This document shows, piece after piece, positions 22,331 through 35,103 of a stretch of 43,146 nucleotides of DNA (position 1 is the first letter of the stretch; each line of letters opens with the position of its first letter). The stretch covers positions 1-43,146 of the forward strand of contig JAEEOM010000193.1 in NCBI GenBank assembly GCA_016284265.1. The letters run 5' to 3'. The DNA comes from Bacteroidales bacterium. Its GTDB lineage: Bacteria > Bacteroidota > Bacteroidia > Bacteroidales > UBA932. The position numbers and the translations under genes are program-made. The notes beneath the pieces are model-generated. The model had not been told where the DNA came from. It searched no databases and saw only the letters and a list, made by a program, of their open reading frames with translations.

Positions 22331-22738
22331 ATGGCCTCGATATTCAGTCGCATTGTTGCCGGTGAGATTCCCTCCTGGAAGGTGGCGGAAGACGACCGCT
22401 ACTACGCCTTCCTCGACATCAACCCGCTGGCCGAAGGCCATACCCTCGTGATTCCCAAGCAGGAAGTCGATTACATCTTCGATCTCGACGAAGAGACCTA
22501 TACCGGACTCTGGCAGTTCGCCGCCAGCGTGGCGAAGGCCGTCCAGGAAGTCATCCCTTGCAAGCGCGTAGGTGTGGCTGTCCTGGGTATGGAGGTCCCG
22601 CATACGCACATCCATCTGGTTCCGCTCCAGACGGAAGGAGACCTCGATTTCCGCAAGGAGAAGAAGCATCTCTCCCCGGAGCGTTTTGCCGAAATCGCCC
22701 GGGCGATTGCAGTCGCGTTCAACCAGCAAACCGTTTGA
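22331..22738 (+). CDS. HIT family nucleotide-binding hydrolase
   Basis: 135 residues with the start SIFSRIVAGEIPSWKV, the substrate loop YAFLDINPLAEGHTLVIPK and the histidine triad HTHIHLVPL. HIT proteins hydrolyse or transfer nucleoside phosphoramidates and dinucleotides. The closest bacterial type is the HinT-like branch. It starts 2 bp after greA and stops 4 bp before the next gene, so the three are one transcript. The natural substrate is not predictable here. Confidence 0.93.
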   Translation: MASIFSRIVAGEIPSWKVAEDDRYYAFLDINPLAEGHTLVIPKQEVDYIFDLDEETYTGLWQFAASVAKAVQEVIPCKRVGVAVLGMEVPHTHIHLVPLQTEGDLDFRKEKKHLSPERFAEIARAIAVAFNQQTV

Positions 22739-22742
22739 GACG

Positions 22743-23879
22743 ATGAAAAAGTATATCCTCTGGGCTGTCGCCCTGCTGCTTCTTGCCGCCTGCCAGACGG
22801 CCCCGGTCGCCCGGATCGTAGCCACCGTTGAAGGCGCCGGCGACAAAGCTGTCGTCCTGCAGAAGTTCAATTACAACCGTCTCCAGACGGTCGATACCAT
22901 CCGGACCGATCACGACGGCCATTTCAACTACAAAGTGCGGCTGACCGGAAATGCGCCGTATATCTATTACCTGTCGCTGGAAGAAAAACCGGTGGCTTCG
23001 CTGGTCCTGCTTCCTTCCGATCAAGTAACCCTCACGGTACCTGCCGAAGGCCCGTTCACGGTAGAAGGATCCGAGGAGTCGGTGCTTTATCAGGAAGTCA
23101 ATTCCGCCTTCTCCACGGCGTCCGTGCAGATGAACAACCTGGCCGCCTCCTTGTCGGACGACAGCTCCGAGGCTGAAATCCAGGCGGTCAACCGCGCCAT
23201 GAGCAAGTTGTATGTCGATTACAAACGGCAGGCTATCAAGCACATCGTGAGCCATCCCCGCTCCATCACTTCGGCCATCACGCTGTTCCGTCGCTTCAGC
23301 GACAACCTGCCCGTGTTCGGTCAGGAGAGCGATGTGGTGTTCTACAGGACGGTGCTCGATTCGCTTTCTCAGGCATATCCCAAGACGGAATATCTCAAGG
23401 CCATCCGCGAGGAACTTGCGGCCCGCGACCATAACCTGGCGTTCGCCTCGCGTTTCGGTGAAGCGGAAATCATCAGCTTCCCCGACCTGATCATGCCGGA
23501 CGTGCAAGGGCAGGACCGTACCCTCTCAGAGCAGAAAGGGCAGGTAATCATCCTCTCTTTCTGGAGTGTGGGCCAAGATGAGCACAAAGTGTTCAACGTG
23601 GACCTGGCCGAGCTCTATGCCAAGTATCATGCCCAGGGGCTGGAGGTCTATCAGGTCAGCCTGGATGTCGACAAGGCCAGTTGGGCTTCGGTGGTGCGGA
23701 GCCAGAATCTTCCCTGGATCAGCGTGAATGACGGGTTCGGCGCCCAGTCTCCGGCTGTCCTTGCCTACAACGTGGATCACGTTCCCACGATGTTCATCAT
23801 CGACCGGGCCGGTGACATCGCTGCCCGCGACATTTTCGACCGCGACGCGCTGGAACAGCAGATCAAGAAGTTGTTATAG
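22743..23879 (+). CDS. Thioredoxin-fold lipoprotein (TlpA/AhpC-TSA-like) lacking the CxxC
   Basis: This 378-residue protein starts MKKYILWAVALLLLAACQT, a lipobox (LAAC). Residues 20-115 resemble the DUF4369 beta domain found ahead of many Bacteroidota thiol-disulfide proteins (VVLQKFNYNRLQTVDTIRTD). The C-terminal 130 residues have the thioredoxin fold with FPDLIMPDVQGQDRTLSEQKGQVIILSFW in adjacent parts and the cis-Pro loop HVPTMFIID. Where TlpA has WCPPC, this protein has FWSVGQDEHKVF and no Cys, so no thiol redox activity is expected. The only Cys is the lipidated one. It may be a chaperone or scaffold. It overlaps the convergent tsaB by 6 bp. Confidence 0.85.
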   Translation: MKKYILWAVALLLLAACQTAPVARIVATVEGAGDKAVVLQKFNYNRLQTVDTIRTDHDGHFNYKVRLTGNAPYIYYLSLEEKPVASLVLLPSDQVTLTVPAEGPFTVEGSEESVLYQEVNSAFSTASVQMNNLAASLSDDSSEAEIQAVNRAMSKLYVDYKRQAIKHIVSHPRSITSAITLFRRFSDNLPVFGQESDVVFYRTVLDSLSQAYPKTEYLKAIREELAARDHNLAFASRFGEAEIISFPDLIMPDVQGQDRTLSEQKGQVIILSFWSVGQDEHKVFNVDLAELYAKYHAQGLEVYQVSLDVDKASWASVVRSQNLPWISVNDGFGAQSPAVLAYNVDHVPTMFIIDRAGDIAARDIFDRDALEQQIKKLL

Positions 23880-24551
23880 AATGGATTTCCGGCTGATGCC
23901 GGCGACAAAATCTTTCAGATAAAAGGGTTCAAAGTACGCTACGTCTTTGAACTCTTTTTTTTGCAGGGCCATGAGCGCCGGCTGCACCATGGCGGTGGCC
24001 AACGGATAGCACGCCTGGAAAGTGGCGTTGGGGTGCGGGCAGATGGTTCGGAACTTCTCAACGCCCGTGCCGATGAACAGGACGGTTCCCGCTTCCAGTT
24101 CCTGATGGAAACTGTCGGCGTCCAGGATGATGGCCCGGGTTTCGTCCAGTTTGTTGCCGTCACGGTCAAACGGGGCGGCATAGACCTCCATCCGACGGGC
24201 ATCGATCATGGCGACGATCCGGTCGAAACCGCCATGGGCCTGGCAGGCGAGAATCCGCAGGGTATCAATGCCGAGCAACGGCTTCCCTGCGCCGAAACAG
24301 AAGCCTTTTGCCGTTGAAACGCCGACGCGCAGGCCGGTATAGGATCCCGGTCCTTCACTGACGGCAATGGCATCAAGGTCGGTGGCAGTCAAGCCGCCTT
24401 CCTGCAGAACCTCCTGGATATAAGGTGCCAGCTGGGCGGCGTGTTGCCGGGGCGTTTCATTGATTCTTGCGGCTACGATCTGCGTTCCGTCGGAGAGCGC
24501 TACCGAGCAGCACTCCGTGCTGGTCTCGATCATCAGGATCTTTTCACTCAT
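23874..24551 (-). CDS. tsaB: tRNA t6A synthesis protein TsaB
   Basis: 225 residues, an ASKHA-fold pseudo-enzyme that partners TsaD and TsaE to make N6-threonylcarbamoyladenosine on ANN-decoding tRNAs. MIETSTECCSVALSDG at the N-terminus and VSEGPGSYTGLRVGVSTAKG are the family hallmarks. The 3' end overlaps the convergent lipoprotein gene by 6 bp. A plus-strand terminator lies inside its final 90 bp. It starts 6 bp after hlyD, which makes it the last gene of the peptide-exporter operon, an odd place for an essential tRNA-modification gene. Confidence 0.93.
   Translation of the reverse strand: MSEKILMIETSTECCSVALSDGTQIVAARINETPRQHAAQLAPYIQEVLQEGGLTATDLDAIAVSEGPGSYTGLRVGVSTAKGFCFGAGKPLLGIDTLRILACQAHGGFDRIVAMIDARRMEVYAAPFDRDGNKLDETRAIILDADSFHQELEAGTVLFIGTGVEKFRTICPHPNATFQACYPLATAMVQPALMALQKKEFKDVAYFEPFYLKDFVAGISRKSIL
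23925..23962 (+). terminator. Intrinsic terminator of the greA operon, inside tsaB
   Basis: GGGTTCAAAG (23925-23934), a 10-nt loop and CTTTGAACTC (23945-23954) form a 10-bp stem with one G-U pair, followed by eight T. It is positioned to end the greA-HIT-lipoprotein transcript about 45-80 nt past its stop. The same bases encode the last part of TsaB on the other strand. Confidence 0.8.
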
Positions 24552-24557
24552 TGTGTT

Positions 24558-25724
24558 TCACTTTTTGCCGGATACTTTCAGCCGCTGTCCTTCCGTGAGC
24601 TCCTTGGCGATGATATCAGACGGTCCCGTGACCACCTGGTCTTCTTCGGAAAGCCCGGTACGGATTTCAATCCGGTCCATCTGCTGGATGCCTGTCGTAA
24701 CCCTTCTCGCTTGTGCGGTGTTCTTGGGGCCGACTGTCCAGACGAAGGTTTCCTTGCTGCGGTTGAAGATACTCTCAACAGGCAGTGTCAGGCAGTCCCT
24801 GCTCTCATCCGTGCGTATGGAGACGGCGGCGGACATGCCGGGGAGAAACTTCACCGAATCGGACAGCAACTCGATCCGGACTGCAAAGTTAGTAACTTGA
24901 TTGAACCGCTCGTCCAGATTTTTGGCCGAATTTGCGATTTGTGTCACCCAACCCCGGAAATATCGCCCCGGATAGGCATCGACTTCCACCCGGACGCTGT
25001 CGCCGGGCTCGATCCGGACAATGTCTCCTTCGCCTACTTCAACGCTGACTTCCATCCGGCTGAAGTCTGCGATACGGAGCAGTTCGGTCCCGGCCATCTG
25101 GCTGGTCCCGACCACTCGTTCTCCTTTTTCCACCCCAATCCGGGAGACGGTTCCCTGGATCGGGGCATAGAGCGTGGTTTTGAGCAGGTTTTCCTTGGCT
25201 TCCTTCAGTTGGGCCTCGCCGCTGCGGATGGCGTATTCTGCAGCGCGCAGACCGCTTTCCGCCACTTCCAGCGCTGTCTTGGAGGCTTGGAATTCCGCCG
25301 CCGAGACGGCGTTCAGTTCAAAAAGCTGCCGGTTCCTGTCATGGTTGAGGCGAGCCTGGCGGACCTCTGCGCGCTGCCGGGCACACTCGGCCCGGAGACT
25401 GCCTAACGAAGCACCTGCCTGCTCGACTTGTGAAAGGTAGAGGTCCTGACGGATTTTGAGGAGAAGGTCACCGGCTTCGACGGAATCTCCCTCCCGGACG
25501 AAGAGTTCCACGACTTCGCCGGAAACATCCGGCGTGATGCGTACTTCCACGACGGGGCGGATGGTGCCGGAGGCGGGAATCATTTCTATCAGGTCGCGGC
25601 GGTCCGGCCGTTCCACGGTGACTTCGGTCCGCTGGCTGCGCCCCGGCCGGAGCAGCAGGAGAAGCAACATTGCGGTCACGGTCAGCACGATCTTTCCTTT
25701 CCGGGTTTTGACAAAGGCTTTCAT
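24558..25724 (-). CDS. HlyD/RND-type membrane fusion protein
   Basis: 388 residues. A single N-terminal membrane anchor (about 10-24, KIVLTVTAMLLLLLL), a barrel-sandwich hybrid (about 45-85 and 185-215, with SGEVVELFVREGDSV and APIQGTVSRIGVEKGERV), a long coiled-coil hairpin between them (about 90-180, many Arg/Glu/Ala heptads) and beta-barrel domains up to LTEGQRLKVSG. It bridges an inner-membrane pump to an outer-membrane channel. The start at 25724 overlaps the tolC stop by 4 bp (ATGA). Its position after PCAT, peptides and tolC makes it the adaptor of the peptide exporter. No MacB-like permease is next to it, though a role with another pump cannot be excluded. Confidence 0.9.
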   Translation of the reverse strand: MKAFVKTRKGKIVLTVTAMLLLLLLRPGRSQRTEVTVERPDRRDLIEMIPASGTIRPVVEVRITPDVSGEVVELFVREGDSVEAGDLLLKIRQDLYLSQVEQAGASLGSLRAECARQRAEVRQARLNHDRNRQLFELNAVSAAEFQASKTALEVAESGLRAAEYAIRSGEAQLKEAKENLLKTTLYAPIQGTVSRIGVEKGERVVGTSQMAGTELLRIADFSRMEVSVEVGEGDIVRIEPGDSVRVEVDAYPGRYFRGWVTQIANSAKNLDERFNQVTNFAVRIELLSDSVKFLPGMSAAVSIRTDESRDCLTLPVESIFNRSKETFVWTVGPKNTAQARRVTTGIQQMDRIEIRTGLSEEDQVVTGPSDIIAKELTEGQRLKVSGKK

Positions 25725-27022
25725 GGACGGTATTGTTCCAGCAATTTGAGTTGGAAGAGGTATTGCCATTTTGCTTGCAGGAAATCGGAAACGGCTTGCG
25801 TGTGGTGGTTCCGTGCGATGAGGTAGTCGAGGACAGAGGCAGCGCCCAGGTTATATTTGGCTTCCGTGACGGACAGCAGTTCCTGCATGGCCTGGAGGGT
25901 TTCTTGGGCCGACAGGTATTTCTGACATCCATTTTCGGCTTCGATCGTAGCGCTACGGATCTCTTCTTCAACCTGGATCCGGACCGTTTCTGCTTCGAGC
26001 CGGGACATCTCCAGTGCCAGACGGCTTTTACGGGCCTGCGAAACGCGCTGCATGGCGTCAAAGACCGGGATGGTCAGTTGGAATGAGAGCGACGGATTGC
26101 GGTTCTCGTCAAGTTGGGTAAAGAACGACCCTTCTGCAGCGCTGCTGTAGTAGGTGCCATAGCCGGCAGTGACGCTCAAGCTGGGCAGGAAGGCCCCTTT
26201 CGCGGCAGCGTGCAGGTGTTCTGCCTCAGCGATGTGTCTGCGTGTACACTGGATGCGGGGATCCTGCCAAAGCCAGTCTTCGACTTGGGTATGGGAAAGG
26301 TACGGTACGCTACGGGCCAGGGCGTCGTCGTCCCGGGAGTCATCGACTGTCAGCACTTCTTCCGGCGATAGATTCATCAGGCGCCCCAGGGTCAGCAGGG
26401 CGGTCCGCACCCGGCAGGCGGCTTCTATCTCGGCCGCCTTTTCGGAGGCCACCTGGGCGTCCATCTCATGGAGGGCACTTTTGGGCTGGCTGCCGGCAGC
26501 TACCAGCTGCGCAGTCCTTTCCTGCTGTGAAACGATGGTTGCGTAGCTTTCACATGTGCAGGCGTGTAGTTGCCGGGCGAGCATCAATTCCACCCAGGCA
26601 CGCGTGATATCTCGTGTCAGGGAGCGCGCCAGCGTCCCTGCGTCCAGCTGTGCCGCTTCAAGCGATTCCCGGGCGGCCAGCCGGGTGTTGTGTCGGGACA
26701 GGCCGTCGAACAGGGGCAGGGAGAGGTTGAGCGAAGCGCCGGTTGCCTGCGTCAACTTGTTGCGGATGATGACCAGTTCCTGCATATCGACACTGCGCCC
26801 CCAGTTTGCGCCTTGCGTCAGTTGGATGCCGACCAAGGGCAGGTGTGCGAACTGTTTTTGACGGAGATCGGCTTTCCGGGCAGCTATTTCGAACTCCTGC
26901 CGCCGGATACCGGTGTTGTGTACAAGTCCATACTGGATACAACGTTCGAGCGTCCATGTCTCCTGGGCACGGAGTGGAAAGACGATGCTTCCCAGCAAGA
27001 TCAGCAGGGAGATTGTTTTCAT
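25721..27022 (-). CDS. TolC family outer-membrane channel
   Basis: 433 residues with a Sec signal peptide (MKTISLLILLGSIVFPLRAQ). The mature part begins TWTLERCIQYGLVHN, the usual first helix of OEP proteins. Two repeats of long helices with interspersed strand segments (GASLNLSLPLFDG and SLSFQLTIPVFDA) are the duplicated beta-hairpins that build the outer-membrane barrel of the trimer. It lies between two small precursor-peptide genes and hlyD and is translationally coupled to hlyD. It would provide the exit duct for exported peptides. A hairpin at 27032-27053 precedes it and may lower its expression relative to the peptides. Confidence 0.93.
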   Translation of the reverse strand: MKTISLLILLGSIVFPLRAQETWTLERCIQYGLVHNTGIRRQEFEIAARKADLRQKQFAHLPLVGIQLTQGANWGRSVDMQELVIIRNKLTQATGASLNLSLPLFDGLSRHNTRLAARESLEAAQLDAGTLARSLTRDITRAWVELMLARQLHACTCESYATIVSQQERTAQLVAAGSQPKSALHEMDAQVASEKAAEIEAACRVRTALLTLGRLMNLSPEEVLTVDDSRDDDALARSVPYLSHTQVEDWLWQDPRIQCTRRHIAEAEHLHAAAKGAFLPSLSVTAGYGTYYSSAAEGSFFTQLDENRNPSLSFQLTIPVFDAMQRVSQARKSRLALEMSRLEAETVRIQVEEEIRSATIEAENGCQKYLSAQETLQAMQELLSVTEAKYNLGAASVLDYLIARNHHTQAVSDFLQAKWQYLFQLKLLEQYRP

Positions 27023-27031
27023 GGTTGCAAA

Positions 27032-27053
27032 GGGTCTCTCCGGAGAGAGACCC
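27032..27053 (-). terminator. Hairpin between peptide gene B and tolC, possible partial terminator
   Basis: GGGTCTCTC and GAGAGACCC form a perfect 9-bp stem with a 4-nt loop. On the minus strand only TTT follows before GCAACC and the tolC ATG, so termination would be weak. It could stabilise the 3' end of a short peptide mRNA or attenuate tolC-hlyD. Confidence 0.55.
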
Positions 27054-27065
27054 GATGGATTGGTT

Positions 27066-27227
27066 TCAGATAGAAGCGGTCGGCTTGTCTCTCTTCAGGA
27101 AGAAGAGTGCACCGAAGAAGCGTGCGATCACGCCCAGGATATATCCGATCGTGTAAAGGGCGTCTTGTGCTTTTTTGTCCACACCACCCCATACCAGGGC
27201 GGCCTCGTTGTTCATCAGTTCTCGCAT
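27066..27227 (-). CDS. Precursor peptide B with double-glycine leader, bacteriocin-like
   Basis: A 53-codon gene found by reading the gap between the exporter and tolC. The leader MRELMNNEAALVWGG (1-15) has Leu-12, Glu-8 and Val-4 before the GG, the classic pattern cut by C39 peptidases. The predicted core (16-53, 38 residues) is VDKKAQDALYTIGYILG followed by VIARFFGALFF and a basic tail LKRDKPTASI. It has no Cys. It contains GxxxG (G28-G32) and AxxxG (A35-G39) helix-packing motifs in a hydrophobic stretch long enough to span a membrane. A consensus Shine-Dalgarno (AGGAGG) precedes it. It lies 15 bp after peptide A and 43 bp before tolC. The antimicrobial role is inferred. A signalling peptide is the main alternative. 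Confidence 0.8.
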   Translation of the reverse strand: MRELMNNEAALVWGGVDKKAQDALYTIGYILGVIARFFGALFFLKRDKPTASI

Positions 27228-27234
27228 GTCTTGT

Positions 27235-27240
27235 CCTCCT
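27235..27240 (-). promoter_or_regulatory. Strong Shine-Dalgarno of peptide gene B
   Basis: AGGAGG (in AAGGAGG) lies 7 nt upstream of the ATG. Consensus ribosome binding sites are rare in Bacteroidota, so this decides the start and suggests high translation. Confidence 0.65.
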
Positions 27241-27242
27241 TC

Positions 27243-27437
27243 TTATTCTCTGTCTTTTCCGAGGAAGCCATCCTTGATTCCCCGCAGGAAATTGGGTAAG
27301 TAATCAACGATCGTGTCAATCAGGTTGCGGATCTTCTCGAAGATGTTGGCGAACACGCCGCTGCCTCCGCCCCGCATCTGGAGTTCGGAAGAATTCAGTT
27401 CTCTCAAACCCCGTCCATACATCATTGTTTCTTCCAT
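27243..27437 (-). CDS. Precursor peptide A with double-glycine leader, bacteriocin-like
   Basis: 64 residues from the ATG at 27437 (MEETMMYGRG); a start at 27425 is also possible. A longer frame to 27620 runs back into the exporter gene and is spurious. The leader ends LRELNSSELQMRGGG and aligns with peptide B (R-E-L-x3-E-x5-GG), so cleavage after G25 is favoured. The predicted 39-residue core (26-64) is SGVFANIFEKIRNLIDTIV, then DYLPNFLRGIKDGFLGKDRE. It is amphipathic, has no Cys and has GxxxG at G53-G57. A similar core length to peptide B suggests a two-peptide (class IIb-like) pair. It follows the PCAT exporter by 74 bp, and no modification enzyme is encoded nearby. Confidence 0.82.
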   Translation of the reverse strand: MEETMMYGRGLRELNSSELQMRGGGSGVFANIFEKIRNLIDTIVDYLPNFLRGIKDGFLGKDRE

Positions 27438-27492
27438 AGGTATGTTTGTTTTTCGTGGTTCCCGTCCTTGCAGGTGTCCGGGATTGACCTTG

Positions 27493-27506
27493 TCCGTGCG
27501 CACGGA
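27493..27506 (-). repeat. 14-bp perfect palindrome upstream of the peptide genes
   Basis: TCCGTGCGCACGGA is fully self-complementary and lies 5 bp after the PCAT stop and 55 bp before peptide A. With no loop it suits a dimeric DNA-binding protein more than an RNA hairpin. No regulator gene is next to it. Confidence 0.45.
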
Positions 27507-27511
27507 AACTT

Positions 27512-29572
27512 CTATAGATTGATGATTTTGTCGGCGATGGCCGCCTGGTCGGCATGATGCGTGATCATCATCACGGTTCCGCCTTCGTCCCGGAAGCGGA
27601 CAATCCGTCTGAGCAGACACTCCCGGGCAGATTCGTCAAGCGAGGCGGTTGCCTCGTCGAGGATGAGTACCGATGGCCGATGATAGAGGGCCCGGGCCAG
27701 CGCAATCCGCTGGCGTTGGCCGCCGGAGAGAAGGCTGCCCCGTTCTCCGACACGGGTCAGCAAACCCATCGGCAGTGTCCGTACCATCGTTCCCAGATCC
27801 AGTTCATCCAGCAACTGAGTGATGCGCGCGATGTCAGGCTTGGGATCCAGGCAGGCAATATTGTCGAGGATTGAGGCGTTCAGCAGTTGTGGCTCCTGCG
27901 GCACGATGGAGACAAAACGCCGCCAGGCATCCAGTGCGTAAAGTCGGATATCGTTCTTCCCGAGCCGGATGGTGCCTTGCTGGACGGAGTAGTCGCGCAT
28001 CAGCAGCGCTGCGAGCGAACTTTTTCCGCAGCCGCTCGGCCCCCGGACGGCTGTAATGCGTCCTGCATCCAGCGTGAGGCTGAAATCGCGGAGCAGTTCC
28101 GGGCTTCCGGGGTAGGAGAAAGTGATCCGGTCAAAGACCAGGTCGGCGCCGGCTTCGGGTTCAAAGGAGCCGATGCCCGTCTCTTCCGGGGGCAGGAGTG
28201 TGATATCGCTCAGCCTTTCGTAGGCGATCCGGGCTTCCGAAAAGGAGTTGCCGATGCCGACGAGGTCTTCGAGCGGCGCTGCGAACCAGGCGGTCAGGGA
28301 GTAGAACGACATAAGGGCGCCGATGGTCAGTGAACCCTTGAAGATGAAGAGAGAACCGACTGTCAGCAGCGTCAGCGTCAGCATCTTGGCGATTCCGTCG
28401 GCGGCGGAGGCGAAAAAGTCGGCCCAGCGTCCGCCCCGGAACAGCTGACGGGCCAGGAGCCTGTACTCCTTTTCGATATCGCGTAGCAGTCGGTCACCGC
28501 CGCCGAAGTAACGGATGTACCGGACGGCCGTGATGCCTTCCACCGTGCGTTCTTCGAACACGGCGGACTGTTCGATAATGTCCCGGTTTACCCTTTTGTT
28601 CACCCGGTCGGCGGCCAGATAAAGGATGAGATAGACTGGAATGAATGTCAGCATGAGCAGGGACAGCCGCCAGTGCGTGGTGAACATCAGGGTAAACGAG
28701 ACGGTAAGAATCAGGGAACTGGTCAGCAGCGTCGAGACGCCCTCGACCAGGAAATGACGTATTTTGGCGGCATCGCCGATGCGCGCGTTGAGTTCGCCGC
28801 TGCCCCGGCGGGTGAAAAACGCAGCGGGCAGCCGGAACAGATGCCTCAGATAGTTCAGGATCAGGTGGGTATCGAGCATGACGCTCAGGCGCAGGGAGTA
28901 GAGGATCCGGCCATATCCGACCAGCAATGTGCAGACCATGACCGAGAGCATCAGCAGGCCGGTCTTCAGCAGTTCGGCCCGGTCATTTTCCGGCAGGATA
29001 CCGTCGATGATGTGTTGCAGGAACAAGGCGGTGCACAGTCCGGCTACGATATAGATGACCGAACCGGCCAGCATGAGCCCGTAATCCCGGAGTGAGAGGA
29101 CACGCAGGCATTGGAAAAGGGAGCGCTGCCGGGGTGTCGGAGTTGCCTGGCGGATATCTGGTTCCGGAGTCATGGTCACCAGATAACCGGTCCAGGCTTT
29201 GCGCAAAGCTTCGGTCGGTATTTGTACTTGTTTGCCAAGACCCGGGTCCATGATGCGTGCCCGCTGCGGCGTGAGGGATTGCAGCACGACGAAATGGAGG
29301 TCTTCCTGGCGGTTGATCACGTGCAGGATGACTGGTTCCGACAGGCCGTAGAGGCTCTCCAGCCGCTTGTCGTCGGATTTGTAGCCCGCAGCACGGAATC
29401 CAAGCGTCCGGCAGGCGTCCAGGATTCCTTTGATGCTGGTGCCTGCCGGCGAGGTTCCGGACGCTTCCCGGATAACTGTCAGCGGGATATCCTGCCCATA
29501 ATGCCGGGCAATGGAAGCGATGCACGCCGCAGCGCAGTCCGATAAGTCGTGTTGTCGTATGGCTGTTTTCAT
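27512..29572 (-). CDS. Peptidase-containing ABC transporter (PCAT), C39 family
   Basis: 686 residues in three parts. Residues 1-140 are a C39 peptidase: Q7, catalytic C13 in RQHDLSDCAAAC, and the His/Asp pair in HFVVLQSL and RIMDPGLG. Residues 155-440 are a six-helix ABC exporter domain. Residues 460-686 are the ATPase: Walker A GPSGCGKSS (about 510), signature LLSGGQRQRIALARAL, Walker B VLILDEATASLD and H-loop MITHHADQ. PCATs cut leader peptides after Gly-Gly and export the core. Two such precursors lie immediately downstream, then tolC and hlyD. The gene starts at 29572, directly after a hairpin at 29589-29649. Confidence 0.96.
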   Translation of the reverse strand: MKTAIRQHDLSDCAAACIASIARHYGQDIPLTVIREASGTSPAGTSIKGILDACRTLGFRAAGYKSDDKRLESLYGLSEPVILHVINRQEDLHFVVLQSLTPQRARIMDPGLGKQVQIPTEALRKAWTGYLVTMTPEPDIRQATPTPRQRSLFQCLRVLSLRDYGLMLAGSVIYIVAGLCTALFLQHIIDGILPENDRAELLKTGLLMLSVMVCTLLVGYGRILYSLRLSVMLDTHLILNYLRHLFRLPAAFFTRRGSGELNARIGDAAKIRHFLVEGVSTLLTSSLILTVSFTLMFTTHWRLSLLMLTFIPVYLILYLAADRVNKRVNRDIIEQSAVFEERTVEGITAVRYIRYFGGGDRLLRDIEKEYRLLARQLFRGGRWADFFASAADGIAKMLTLTLLTVGSLFIFKGSLTIGALMSFYSLTAWFAAPLEDLVGIGNSFSEARIAYERLSDITLLPPEETGIGSFEPEAGADLVFDRITFSYPGSPELLRDFSLTLDAGRITAVRGPSGCGKSSLAALLMRDYSVQQGTIRLGKNDIRLYALDAWRRFVSIVPQEPQLLNASILDNIACLDPKPDIARITQLLDELDLGTMVRTLPMGLLTRVGERGSLLSGGQRQRIALARALYHRPSVLILDEATASLDESARECLLRRIVRFRDEGGTVMMITHHADQAAIADKIINL

Positions 29573-29653: not shown

Positions 29654-29806
29654 TTATAGGAAAAAAACGACCGACAGGACGGACAGGGAAAGGGTTGCCG
29701 TCAGCAGAAATGCATAGAGAAAGCCAGATAGAAGGGGAATGGGCAGAAGAAGATCCACTGCCACGTCCGTGTCGGTCAGCTGTCGTATCCGGGTGTCGTG
29801 TACCAT
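29654..29806 (-). CDS. Small hydrophobic protein, candidate immunity protein
   Basis: 50 residues, too short for a standard ORF cutoff. A polar start (MVHDTRIRQLTDTDVAVD) leads to 32 hydrophobic residues (LLLPIPLLSGFLYAFLL and TATLSLSVLSVVFFL) that could form one long or two short transmembrane helices. Codon use looks natural. A near-consensus -7 box (CAACTTTG) lies 24 nt upstream. It precedes the PCAT gene, and small membrane proteins often give immunity to class II bacteriocins, so that role is proposed only as a hypothesis. It has no double-Gly leader. It could also be a random hydrophobic frame in a 330-bp gap. Confidence 0.45.
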   Translation of the reverse strand: MVHDTRIRQLTDTDVAVDLLLPIPLLSGFLYAFLLTATLSLSVLSVVFFL

Positions 29807-29905: not shown

Positions 29906-30406
29906 TTAAATTTGTCCCTGCTGGAAAAGCTCCTTGAAATGCGGGAAGACTTCTTTGGAAAGATCGAGCAGGGCAGGGTAGAAGCGGGATTCTTCCAGCT
30001 TCTCTTTCGGGATGAAATCCAGCAGGTTATTGGCCGAATCCACGAAATAGACCACCACTGAAAGTACCAAAGCGAAGATGCAGAAGGTCACGACGATACC
30101 GAGCAGTTTGTTGAGCCATCCCAACAGGGAAATCTTGATTATTTTTTCGAGCATTTTGCCCAACAGGTTCAAAAGCAACGCAACTGCGAAAAAAAACAGG
30201 ATAAAGGATATGGCTTTCGCCCAGAATTCGGGGATTTTTACGTGCTGGAGCACCCAGTCCGCGGCAGGCGTGGCGAATTTCAGGGACAGCATGATGCCGA
30301 AATAGATGACGGCAAAGGCGACCACCTGCTTGATCAGGCCGTTTTTGATGCCGAAGTAGAGGACCGGCAGAAAGCAGCAGACGATGACGATGTCGATAAC
30401 TCCCAT
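29906..30406 (-). CDS. cvpA: CvpA family membrane protein
   Basis: 166 residues with four hydrophobic helices (about 4-22, 25-45, 62-85 and 98-122), the N-terminal start IDIVIVCCFLPVLYFGIKNGLIKQV of the CvpA family in adjacent blocks, and a soluble tail. CvpA was named for colicin V production in E. coli but is widespread and linked to envelope stress and purine loci, so the name alone does not prove a bacteriocin role. It lies upstream of and in the same direction as the peptide exporter, separated by 99 bp, and is divergent from ileS with a good promoter. Confidence 0.9.
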   Translation of the reverse strand: MGVIDIVIVCCFLPVLYFGIKNGLIKQVVAFAVIYFGIMLSLKFATPAADWVLQHVKIPEFWAKAISFILFFFAVALLLNLLGKMLEKIIKISLLGWLNKLLGIVVTFCIFALVLSVVVYFVDSANNLLDFIPKEKLEESRFYPALLDLSKEVFPHFKELFQQGQI

Positions 30407-35018: not shown

Positions 35019-35103
35019 GGAAGGTTGGCCGAGTGGTCTATGGCGGCAGTCTTGAAAACTGTTAGGCGGTAACGCCTCAGGGGTTCGAATCCCTTACCTT
35101 CCG
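35019..35103 (+). tRNA. tRNA-Ser (anticodon UGA)
   Basis: The cloverleaf folds completely. Acceptor GGAAGGT pairs with ACCTTCC and the discriminator is G103. The anticodon stem GCAGT/ACTGT holds loop CTTGAAA with anticodon TGA, reading UCA (and likely UCG by wobble). The variable arm (AGGCG-GTAA-CGCCT) is long, as in all serine tRNAs. T-loop is TTCGAAT. CCA is not encoded. The next bases start a 32-bp hairpin that includes the discriminator base. Confidence 0.97.

What the first reader, a model, noticed from the sequence alone, without database searches (positions are those of the whole stretch)
27066..29572. Undescribed peptide secretion locus with two double-glycine precursors and a dedicated tripartite exporter
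Seen: a C39-peptidase ABC transporter with its catalytic Cys (C13), followed by two short ORFs (64 and 53 codons) whose leaders align (R-E-L-x3-E-x5-GG), then tolC and hlyD, all on one strand with short gaps. Known: PCATs cut after GG and export Cys-rich or Cys-free bacteriocins or signals, and Gram-negative systems add an adaptor and a TolC duct. Inferred: the window encodes a small secreted peptide system, probably antimicrobial. The second precursor is under 60 codons and is likely missed by gene callers.
Basis: partly seen in the sequence, partly recalled or inferred. Interest (0 to 1): 0.9.

Follow-up and report, generated by a model that had tools for sequence, protein, structure and literature searches.

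The report
Twin-peptide exporter with new RNA element
A family of uncultured, mostly gut-living Bacteroidales carries a stably inherited gene cluster that seems to make and export two small helical peptides as a pair, with a knotted RNA structure of no known family just before the first peptide gene; what the peptides do and what the RNA senses are open, testable questions.

Summary
In detail: a C39-peptidase ABC exporter (PCAT), two small leader-peptide genes (P1, 64 aa; P2, 53 aa), tolC and a periplasmic adaptor lie on one strand. Relatives show much more. PCAT-P1-P2-tolC-adaptor-tsaB recurs at the same chromosomal place in the genus and in ten further genera of the family. Both peptides were found in 33 of 34 genus loci (the other is cut by a contig end) and in 48 of 48 syntenic loci among 60 fetched from other genera. 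They are under purifying selection, and the locus follows flanking housekeeping genes (vertical inheritance). Both cores are predicted helical with a near-invariant GxxxG, as in two-peptide (class IIb) bacteriocins. Two parts were missed: a probable 50-aa single-TM gene before PCAT, and a hairpin plus H-type pseudoknot RNA ending about 21 nt before the P1 start codon. This RNA covaries strongly, has no Rfam match, and was found once per genome, beside this PCAT. Best reading: a core secreted two-peptide system with RNA-controlled P1 translation. 'Antimicrobial' is unproven: near-universality, conservation and weak charge speak against a typical bacteriocin; lack of a certain immunity gene is not decisive in Bacteroidales.

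The parts
27512..29572 (-). PCAT: ABC exporter with N-terminal C39 peptidase, 686 aa
   Evidence: Pfam PF03412, PF00664, PF00005; C13/H93/D109 and the NBD residues checked are identical in 82 of 82 aligned relatives
27460..27506 (-). structured RNA element: self-complementary hairpin (27493-27506) followed by an H-type pseudoknot; stem A 27487-27490 with 27472-27475, stem B 27479-27483 with 27460-27464
   Evidence: covariance model match 27456-27508, 53.5 bits; no Rfam match at E <= 5
27243..27437 (-). P1 precursor, 64 aa, leader ends GG at residues 23-24, core GSGVFANIFEKIRNLIDTIVDYLPNFLRGIKDGFLGKDRE
   Evidence: 33 of 34 genus loci, alignments A1 and A4, pN/pS
27386..27436 (-). possible start-codon helix inside P1: UGGAAGAA (27429-27436) with UUCUUCCG (27386-27393)
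   Evidence: invariant in the 22 rows of A5, Ser codons TCT and TCC in 45 of 45 loci, found by RNAalifold; but absent from the window's own minimum-energy fold
27066..27227 (-). P2 precursor, 53 aa, leader ends GG at residues 14-15, core VDKKAQDALYTIGYILGVIARFFGALFFLKRDKPTASI
   Evidence: 37 of 40 genus genomes, one copy each; alignments A2 and A3; helix 16-46 predicted
25721..27022 (-). TolC-family outer-membrane protein, 433 aa
   Evidence: Pfam OEP E 5.5e-43; downstream of P2 in the genus loci not cut by a contig end
24558..25769 (-). periplasmic adaptor, RND type, 403 aa
   Evidence: TIGR01730 above cut-off, HlyD_D23
29654..29806 (-). P0: probable small gene, 50 aa, C-terminal transmembrane segment; candidate immunity or accessory protein
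   Evidence: ORF of this type between cvpA and PCAT in 53 of 83 loci; ATG kept in the nine relatives aligned; pooled pN/pS 0.36, so weaker evidence than for P1 and P2
23874..24551 (-). tsaB (tRNA t6A synthesis), 6 nt downstream of the adaptor; conserved neighbour
   Evidence: TIGR03725 188.6 bits against 69.3; neighbour in relatives
29906..30406 (-). cvpA (Colicin_V family), upstream neighbour
   Evidence: PF02674; upstream in 32 of 34 genus loci

Best explanation
The locus is a core, vertically inherited secretion operon that makes and exports two small peptides as a pair. From established knowledge of the family: the C39 domain of a PCAT cuts precursors after GG and the ABC part exports the cores, here probably through the linked adaptor and TolC. 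Shown here: both precursors are conserved together, and their cores are predicted helical and each carry GxxxG. Inferred: the two cores meet through these motifs in a membrane, as in class IIb two-peptide bacteriocins, and act as one membrane-active unit (toxin, envelope factor or signal). Shown here by comparative analysis: a hairpin plus H-type pseudoknot ends a near-fixed distance (mode 21-22 nt) before the P1 start codon, and P1 lacks a Shine-Dalgarno-like sequence. Inferred: this RNA sets how much P1 is translated relative to the transporter upstream, perhaps in response to a ligand, a protein or a small RNA.
For: Synteny and presence. Vertical inheritance: PCAT-IleS distance correlation 0.73 and PCAT-TsaB 0.85, 0 of 2000 permutations as high in each (67 loci). 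Purifying selection. GxxxG in 79 of 81 P1 cores (18.6 expected by shuffling) and 72 of 81 P2 cores (14.9 expected); [GA]xxxG in 81 of 81 P2 cores (34.8 expected). Helices: P1 26-59 at moderate confidence, P2 16-46 with mean pLDDT above 90 over residues 21-40. RNA: covariation score 0.312 against 0.159 shuffled (0 of 500) and at most 0.122 slid, on an unfitted alignment of 22 loci; 0.580 against 0.194 (0 of 500) and at most 0.122 slid, on a model-fitted alignment of 66 loci. Stem A, which the model did not contain, has 4 or more Watson-Crick pairs in 65 of 66 loci, against 6.3 (maximum 12) with the 5' side shuffled and 33.9 (maximum 46) with partners swapped among loci. The model matches 71 of 199 family genomes, one match each, beside the PCAT (one search read), and 1 of 295 genomes of the order, the window's own. 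SD-like 4-mer upstream: P1 0 of 81, P2 62 of 81.
Against: There are no expression, cleavage or activity data. The 81 loci are related, so the excess of GxxxG over shuffles overstates independence. The P1 model is of moderate confidence (mean pLDDT 63.7). Cores have little net charge (median 0 for P1, +2 for P2), unlike many membrane-active bacteriocins (recalled). In three loci (L135, L136, L138) no tolC or adaptor lies in the locus although PCAT, P1 and P2 stay. For the window taken alone, 2 of 20 shuffles reach its pseudoknot score, and the nested fold has z -1.67. The RNA model misses some family loci that carry the locus (for example G073 and G068), so its absence elsewhere holds only at this sensitivity.
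Confidence: 0.6

Rival explanations
1. A two-peptide bacteriocin proper: the pair kills related Bacteroidales by permeabilising a membrane, with P0 or no protein at all as immunity.
For: Two adjacent GG precursors with GxxxG and a PCAT. P0 is a small membrane protein beside the PCAT in 53 of 83 loci. Bacteroidetocins show that Bacteroidales peptide toxins can lack immunity proteins (passages of PMC6671954), and Cdz shows a two-protein bacteriocin in a Gram-negative (passages of PMC5380434).
Against: Near-universal, single-copy and vertically inherited in the genus; conserved cores; P1 and P2 stay where P0 is missing (L042-L044 and the g39 loci); little net charge.
Confidence: 0.35
2. A conserved peptide signal or envelope factor: the peptides act on the producer or its kin, so that selection keeps the cores.
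For: Vertical inheritance, purifying selection on the cores, presence in 37 of 40 genus genomes with the three misses explained by assembly gaps, co-directional neighbour tsaB.
Against: No receptor or kinase gene was seen between cvpA and tsaB in the loci annotated; cores do diverge strongly between genera.
Confidence: 0.4
3. The conserved sequence before P1 is a DNA operator or a coding by-product, not an RNA structure.
For: The first hairpin is a perfect palindrome in many loci, which a dimeric DNA-binding protein could read. In some genera the element overlaps the PCAT 3' end.
Against: The two pseudoknot stems interleave and covary, which a DNA operator does not need. The element keeps its distance to the P1 start (16-29 nt) but not to the PCAT stop.
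Confidence: 0.08
4. The small ORFs are chance reading frames or degenerate remains.
For: Neither has a Pfam hit, and NCBIfam gives only one weak sub-cut-off match to P2; both are short.
Against: Conservation across 81 loci and pN/pS near 0.17-0.18 in the cores.
Confidence: 0.01

Closest known systems
Class IIb two-peptide bacteriocins (plantaricin EF type; recalled, GxxxG role also stated in passages of PMC5380434)
   Same: two adjacent small genes, GG leaders, PCAT, unmodified helical cores with GxxxG in both
   Different: Gram-negative hosts with tolC and adaptor; near-neutral cores; vertical and near-universal in a genus; no established immunity gene; pseudoknot RNA before P1
Bacteroidetocins (PMC6671954, passages)
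   Same: Bacteroidales, C39-PCAT, short GG leader, about 40-aa core
   Different: bacteroidetocins are single peptides with at least two Cys and are encoded with a thiol oxidoreductase and a 5-TM protein; here there are two peptides, cores with two or more Cys in 2 of 81 (P1) and 0 of 81 (P2), and a tolC-adaptor pair in the locus
Cdz system of Caulobacter (PMC5380434, passages)
   Same: two small secreted proteins with glycine-zipper motifs, type I secretion, Gram-negative
   Different: Cdz proteins are glycine-rich with extended GxxxGxxxG, have RTX-like N-terminal signals in that paper's words, and a 3-TM immunity protein; here there are GG leaders, one GxxxG per core and a C39 domain
Colicin V export (CvaAB-TolC; as described in passages of PMC10352776)
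   Same: PCAT + adaptor + TolC exporting a GG-leader peptide
   Different: colicin V is one larger peptide (size recalled) with TolC encoded elsewhere; here there are two peptides and tolC is linked
Pseudoknot riboswitches (preQ1, SAM-II, SAM-V; recalled and search listings only)
   Same: compact H-type pseudoknot upstream of a start codon
   Different: no Rfam match in the window or in four further loci apart from a tRNA and two weak unrelated hits; position is at the edge of, not over, the ribosome site; ligand unknown

Membership tests
C39-peptidase ABC exporter (PCAT) | C39 peptidase domain fused to ABC membrane and ATPase domains | tested here: met
   Pfam hits all above cut-off
C39-peptidase ABC exporter (PCAT) | catalytic Cys, His and Asp kept | tested here: met
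   82 of 82
C39-peptidase ABC exporter (PCAT) | GG-leader substrates encoded beside it | tested here: met
NCBIfam TIGR01193 (peptide cleavage/export ABC transporter) | score at or above the curated cut-off | tested here: not met
   352.2 against 523.85 bits, so it is not filed in this NCBI subfamily
Class IIb two-peptide bacteriocin | two adjacent precursor genes with GG leaders | tested here: met
   81 loci; a few loci have AG instead of GG
Class IIb two-peptide bacteriocin | GxxxG motif in both cores | tested here: met
   79 of 81 and 72 of 81
Class IIb two-peptide bacteriocin | cationic cores | tested here: not met
   median charge 0 (P1) and +2 (P2); window 0 and +3
Class IIb two-peptide bacteriocin | dedicated immunity gene | tested here: inconclusive
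   P0 is a candidate, present in 53 of 83 loci by a hydropathy criterion
Class IIb two-peptide bacteriocin | synergistic killing by the two peptides | not testable with these tools
   needs peptides and target strains
Bacteroidetocin | at least two Cys in the core | tested here: not met
   2 of 81 P1 and 0 of 81 P2 cores; none in the window's cores
Bacteroidetocin | thiol oxidoreductase and 5-TM gene in the locus | not tested
   no such gene lies between cvpA and tsaB in the window, but relatives were not scanned for these families
Cdz-like two-protein system | glycine-rich proteins with extended GxxxGxxxG | not tested
   the motif was not counted across loci; the window's two cores show none on reading
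Known Rfam RNA family | match to any of 4227 models | tested here: not met
   0 matches at E <= 5 in 27000-27650

The most novel reading that the evidence does not exclude
A whole Bacteroidales lineage keeps a secreted two-peptide system as a core trait, co-directional with tsaB and governed by a new class of cis-acting pseudoknot RNA (possibly a riboswitch, or a leader that senses a protein or the peptides) confined to this operon. The peptides would then be not an optional weapon but a constitutive envelope, signalling or kin-recognition function.
Probability: 0.5. Interest if true: 0.88.

Novelty: new variant of a known kind. Interest (0 to 1): 0.76.

Why it matters
Peptide bacteriocins are commonly patchy, fast-changing islands (recalled). 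Here a GG-leader pair is inherited vertically across many genera with conserved cores, which makes it a clean test of whether such peptides can be a core function of gut bacteria. The pseudoknot RNA is a separate gain: strongly covarying, without an Rfam match, tied to a single operon, and with an easily measured output (P1 translation).

Tried and rejected
Immunity gene: no certain one. P0 was considered; it is missing in L042-L044 and in the g39 loci, which keep P1 and P2, so it cannot be an essential immunity gene there unless it has moved; relocation was not searched.

Known-family hits for P1 and P2: Pfam gave none for the window's peptides, NCBIfam one weak match far below its cut-off (P2 to NF009292, E 0.017). 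Scans of all alignment members gave only scattered matches to one or two members of 28 (best: AMEP412 family, E 4.1e-4, one P1 member; HepT, E 0.0055, two P2 members; lichenicidin A2, E 0.052, two P2 members). PDB profile searches gave a TetR regulator at E 0.0016 for P1, spanning leader and core, and nothing below 0.3 for P2. I judged these chance.

Mobile origin: P2 against plasmids and P1 against phages gave no match; the P2 profile against viral contigs gave 26 pattern matches and no confirmed relative.

Frameshift or readthrough at the PCAT stop: rejected, because the distance from the stop to the pseudoknot varies widely while the distance to the P1 start does not. Some negative PCAT distances may reflect how my script extended the PCAT frame.

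Start-codon helix as the main switch: kept only as a possibility. All eight pairs are invariant, so there is no covariation. The window's own minimum-energy fold pairs UUCUUCC with a nearby GAGAGAA instead. By synonymous recoding the helix exceeds 95% of recodings in 28 of 33 genus loci and 11 of 13 g39 loci but in 2 of 35 others.

Rows dropped: six loci (L052, L142, L158, L160, L164, L191) were left out of the pseudoknot pair tally because the search chose another geometry there. In 13 of 81 loci at least one of 20 shuffles reached the observed pseudoknot score. In one search, four spurious small ORFs were discarded by hand. Twelve of 60 fetched family loci failed the synteny rule and were left out of the 81; one of them, L155, still has P1, P2 and the RNA. 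Stem A is poorly placed in the fitted alignment A7 (48% paired for three of its pairs), which is why it was tested without alignment.
Full report
OBSERVATION. The C39 residues C13, H93 and D109 are identical in 82 of 82 PCATs. The adaptor is of RND type by NCBIfam, and the leader motif differs by one residue between P1 and P2.

SYNTENY. A PCAT relative of 49-87% identity was found in 34 of 37 genomes of the genus in the first search, window included. Among the 34 genus loci, cvpA lies upstream in 32; tolC, adaptor and tsaB lie downstream in the 31 that are not cut by a contig end. The P2 profile matches 37 of 40 genus genomes, once each. Of the three misses, two show only a weak TsaD-like match for tsaB and in the third tsaB starts at base 4 of a contig, so the region is missing from those assemblies. 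In the wider family, 60 PCAT loci were fetched; 48 met the synteny rule, in ten further genera (g26, g28, g29, g30, g35, g36, g37, g39, g42, g45), and all 48 have two small leader ORFs between PCAT and the next gene. Exceptions: three g39 loci show no tolC or adaptor there (L135, L136, L138); three loci have the PCAT-to-tsaB block inverted relative to cvpA-ileS (L142, L163, L167). The organisms named by a scan of named genomes are all Bacteroidales or Bacteroidia MAGs, many from rumen, omasum or horse faeces, among them Candidatus Cacconaster (45 loci; lineage). I recall the family as GTDB UBA932; no call shows that name for it.

RANGE. The P2 profile A3 matched 1 of 393 genomes drawn across the order, the window's own, and 72 of 199 in the family, several of these weak and probably chance. 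P1 (A4) matched 82 of 199 in the family; P1 was not searched across the order. The PCAT at E <= 1e-70 is in 135 of 199 family genomes. A3 missed some family members that do carry P2 (for example G073 and G092, whose loci L153 and L171 have it), so absence outside the family holds only at this sensitivity. A more distant PCAT (L064, another family, 36%) has no P1 or P2 match.

INHERITANCE AND SELECTION. Pairwise distances of PCAT correlate with those of IleS (0.73) and TsaB (0.85) in 67 loci, more than IleS with TsaB (0.61); no permutation of 2000 was as high. This indicates vertical descent. Pooled over 17 pairs, pN/pS is 0.18 (P1 core), 0.165 (P2 core), 0.225 (PCAT), 0.256 (TolC), 0.178 (adaptor) and 0.187 (TsaB). 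The P1 leader stands out with few synonymous changes (pS 0.158 against 0.41-0.52 in the other classes).

PEPTIDES. In the genus, P2 keeps GG, D17, A20, Q21, G28, Y29 and G32, and P1 keeps GG, Y46, P48, G53 and G57. Across the family, GG, D17 and G32 of P2, and GG, Y46 and G53 of P1, stay invariant in the 28-row alignments. GxxxG occurs in 79 of 81 P1 cores and 72 of 81 P2 cores, against 18.6 and 14.9 expected from shuffled cores. AlphaFold gives one long helix in each core: P2 with high confidence over residues 21-40, P1 with moderate confidence. Two or more Cys occur in 2 of 81 P1 and 0 of 81 P2 cores. Median net charge is 0 and +2.

RNA ELEMENT. Between PCAT and P1 lies a self-complementary hairpin followed by two interleaved stems, an H-type pseudoknot. 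In 75 of 81 loci the expected geometry was found, ending 16-29 nt before the P1 start, mode 21-22. Per locus, 68 of 81 had no shuffle of 20 reaching the score; for the window, 2 of 20 did. Covariation on an unfitted alignment of 22 loci: 0.312 against 0.159 shuffled (0 of 500), at most 0.122 slid. On a model-fitted alignment of 66 loci: 0.580 against 0.194 and at most 0.122. Stem A, absent from the model, was tested without alignment: 4 or more Watson-Crick pairs in 65 of 66, against 6.3 and 33.9 in two controls. The model was built from 28 loci and matched 66 of 81 loci given, 28 of them its own. In genomes it matched 35 of 40 in the genus at E <= 1, the strong matches beside the PCAT, and 71 of 199 in the family at E <= 0.05, one each. 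I compared the 71 places by eye: all lie within about 130 nt of the PCAT match, except G187, where the PCAT match is truncated. In 295 genomes of the order only the window's own matched, with strict filters that also miss family members such as G073 and G068. Rfam has no match at E <= 5 in 27000-27650. In four other loci only a tRNA and two weak unrelated hits appear.

START-CODON HELIX. In 45 of 45 loci with the MEE..SSE leader the two Ser codons are TCT and TCC, which make up 8.0% and 29.6% of Ser codons in the same PCATs; the codon before ends in T in 44 of 45. This lets UUCUUCCG pair with UGGAAGAA over the start codon. RNAalifold finds this helix, and two g42 loci keep it with changed letters on both sides (L161, L162). 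Against it: no covariation in the aligned rows, a different fold in the window and no signal in most other genera. I treat it as possible.

THIRD SMALL GENE. P0 (29654-29806) lies between cvpA and PCAT. An ORF of 30-90 codons with a strongly hydrophobic stretch lies there in 53 of 83 loci: 31 of 34 in the genus and 22 of 49 elsewhere. Outside the genus this is a hydropathy criterion, not proven homology. Pooled pN/pS is 0.36.

MECHANISM. Export and cleavage after GG follow from the PCAT family. Pairing of the two helices through GxxxG is inferred from class IIb bacteriocins. RNA control of P1 is inferred from the fixed distance to the start codon, the lack of an SD-like 4-mer before P1 (0 of 81, against 62 of 81 for P2) and the exclusivity of the element.

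LITERATURE. Passages seen: bacteroidetocin producers inhibit themselves and have no obvious immunity gene (PMC6671954); Cdz is a two-protein glycine-zipper bacteriocin of Caulobacter with a 3-TM immunity protein (PMC5380434); RiPP mining in Bacteroidales finds PCATs with GG precursors (PMC10352776). Other papers were seen only as search listings. Nine text searches found no description of this system.

VERDICT. A real, conserved and, as far as searched, undescribed two-peptide export locus with a new structured RNA; function open.

Noticed in passing
L178, L179, L186, L187 (just downstream of PCAT): PCATs of other genera at other places are followed by a 97-113 aa ORF that reads like an HTH domain (by eye, not searched); three of the four have a GG near the C-terminus. 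It may be a regulator that is itself a leader-bearing substrate.
   Followed up: no
window 29906-30406: cvpA ('colicin V production') sits beside a colicin-V-type exporter in 32 of 34 genus loci. Block inversions in L142, L163 and L167 separate them, so the link may be incidental.
   Followed up: partly
window 23874-24551: tsaB follows the adaptor by 6 nt and stays behind the peptide genes even where tolC and the adaptor are missing (L135, L136, L138).
   Followed up: partly
window 22572-23879 (+ strand): TlpA-like gene (name from my reading, not searched) next to tsaB on the opposite strand; where a CxxC would be expected it reads FWSVGQDE, so it may lack thiol chemistry.
   Followed up: no
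window 29654-29806: P0 and its surroundings have few synonymous changes in the closest pairs (pS 0.03-0.27), so the region before PCAT may hold a further regulatory element.
   Followed up: no
window 35019-35103 (+ strand): tRNA gene, the only Rfam match in the window at gathering thresholds.
   Followed up: no
window 27493-27506: The first hairpin's loop is self-complementary in many loci (GCGC, CCGG, GTAC, TGCA), which would allow kissing-loop dimers or reading as a DNA palindrome.
   Followed up: no
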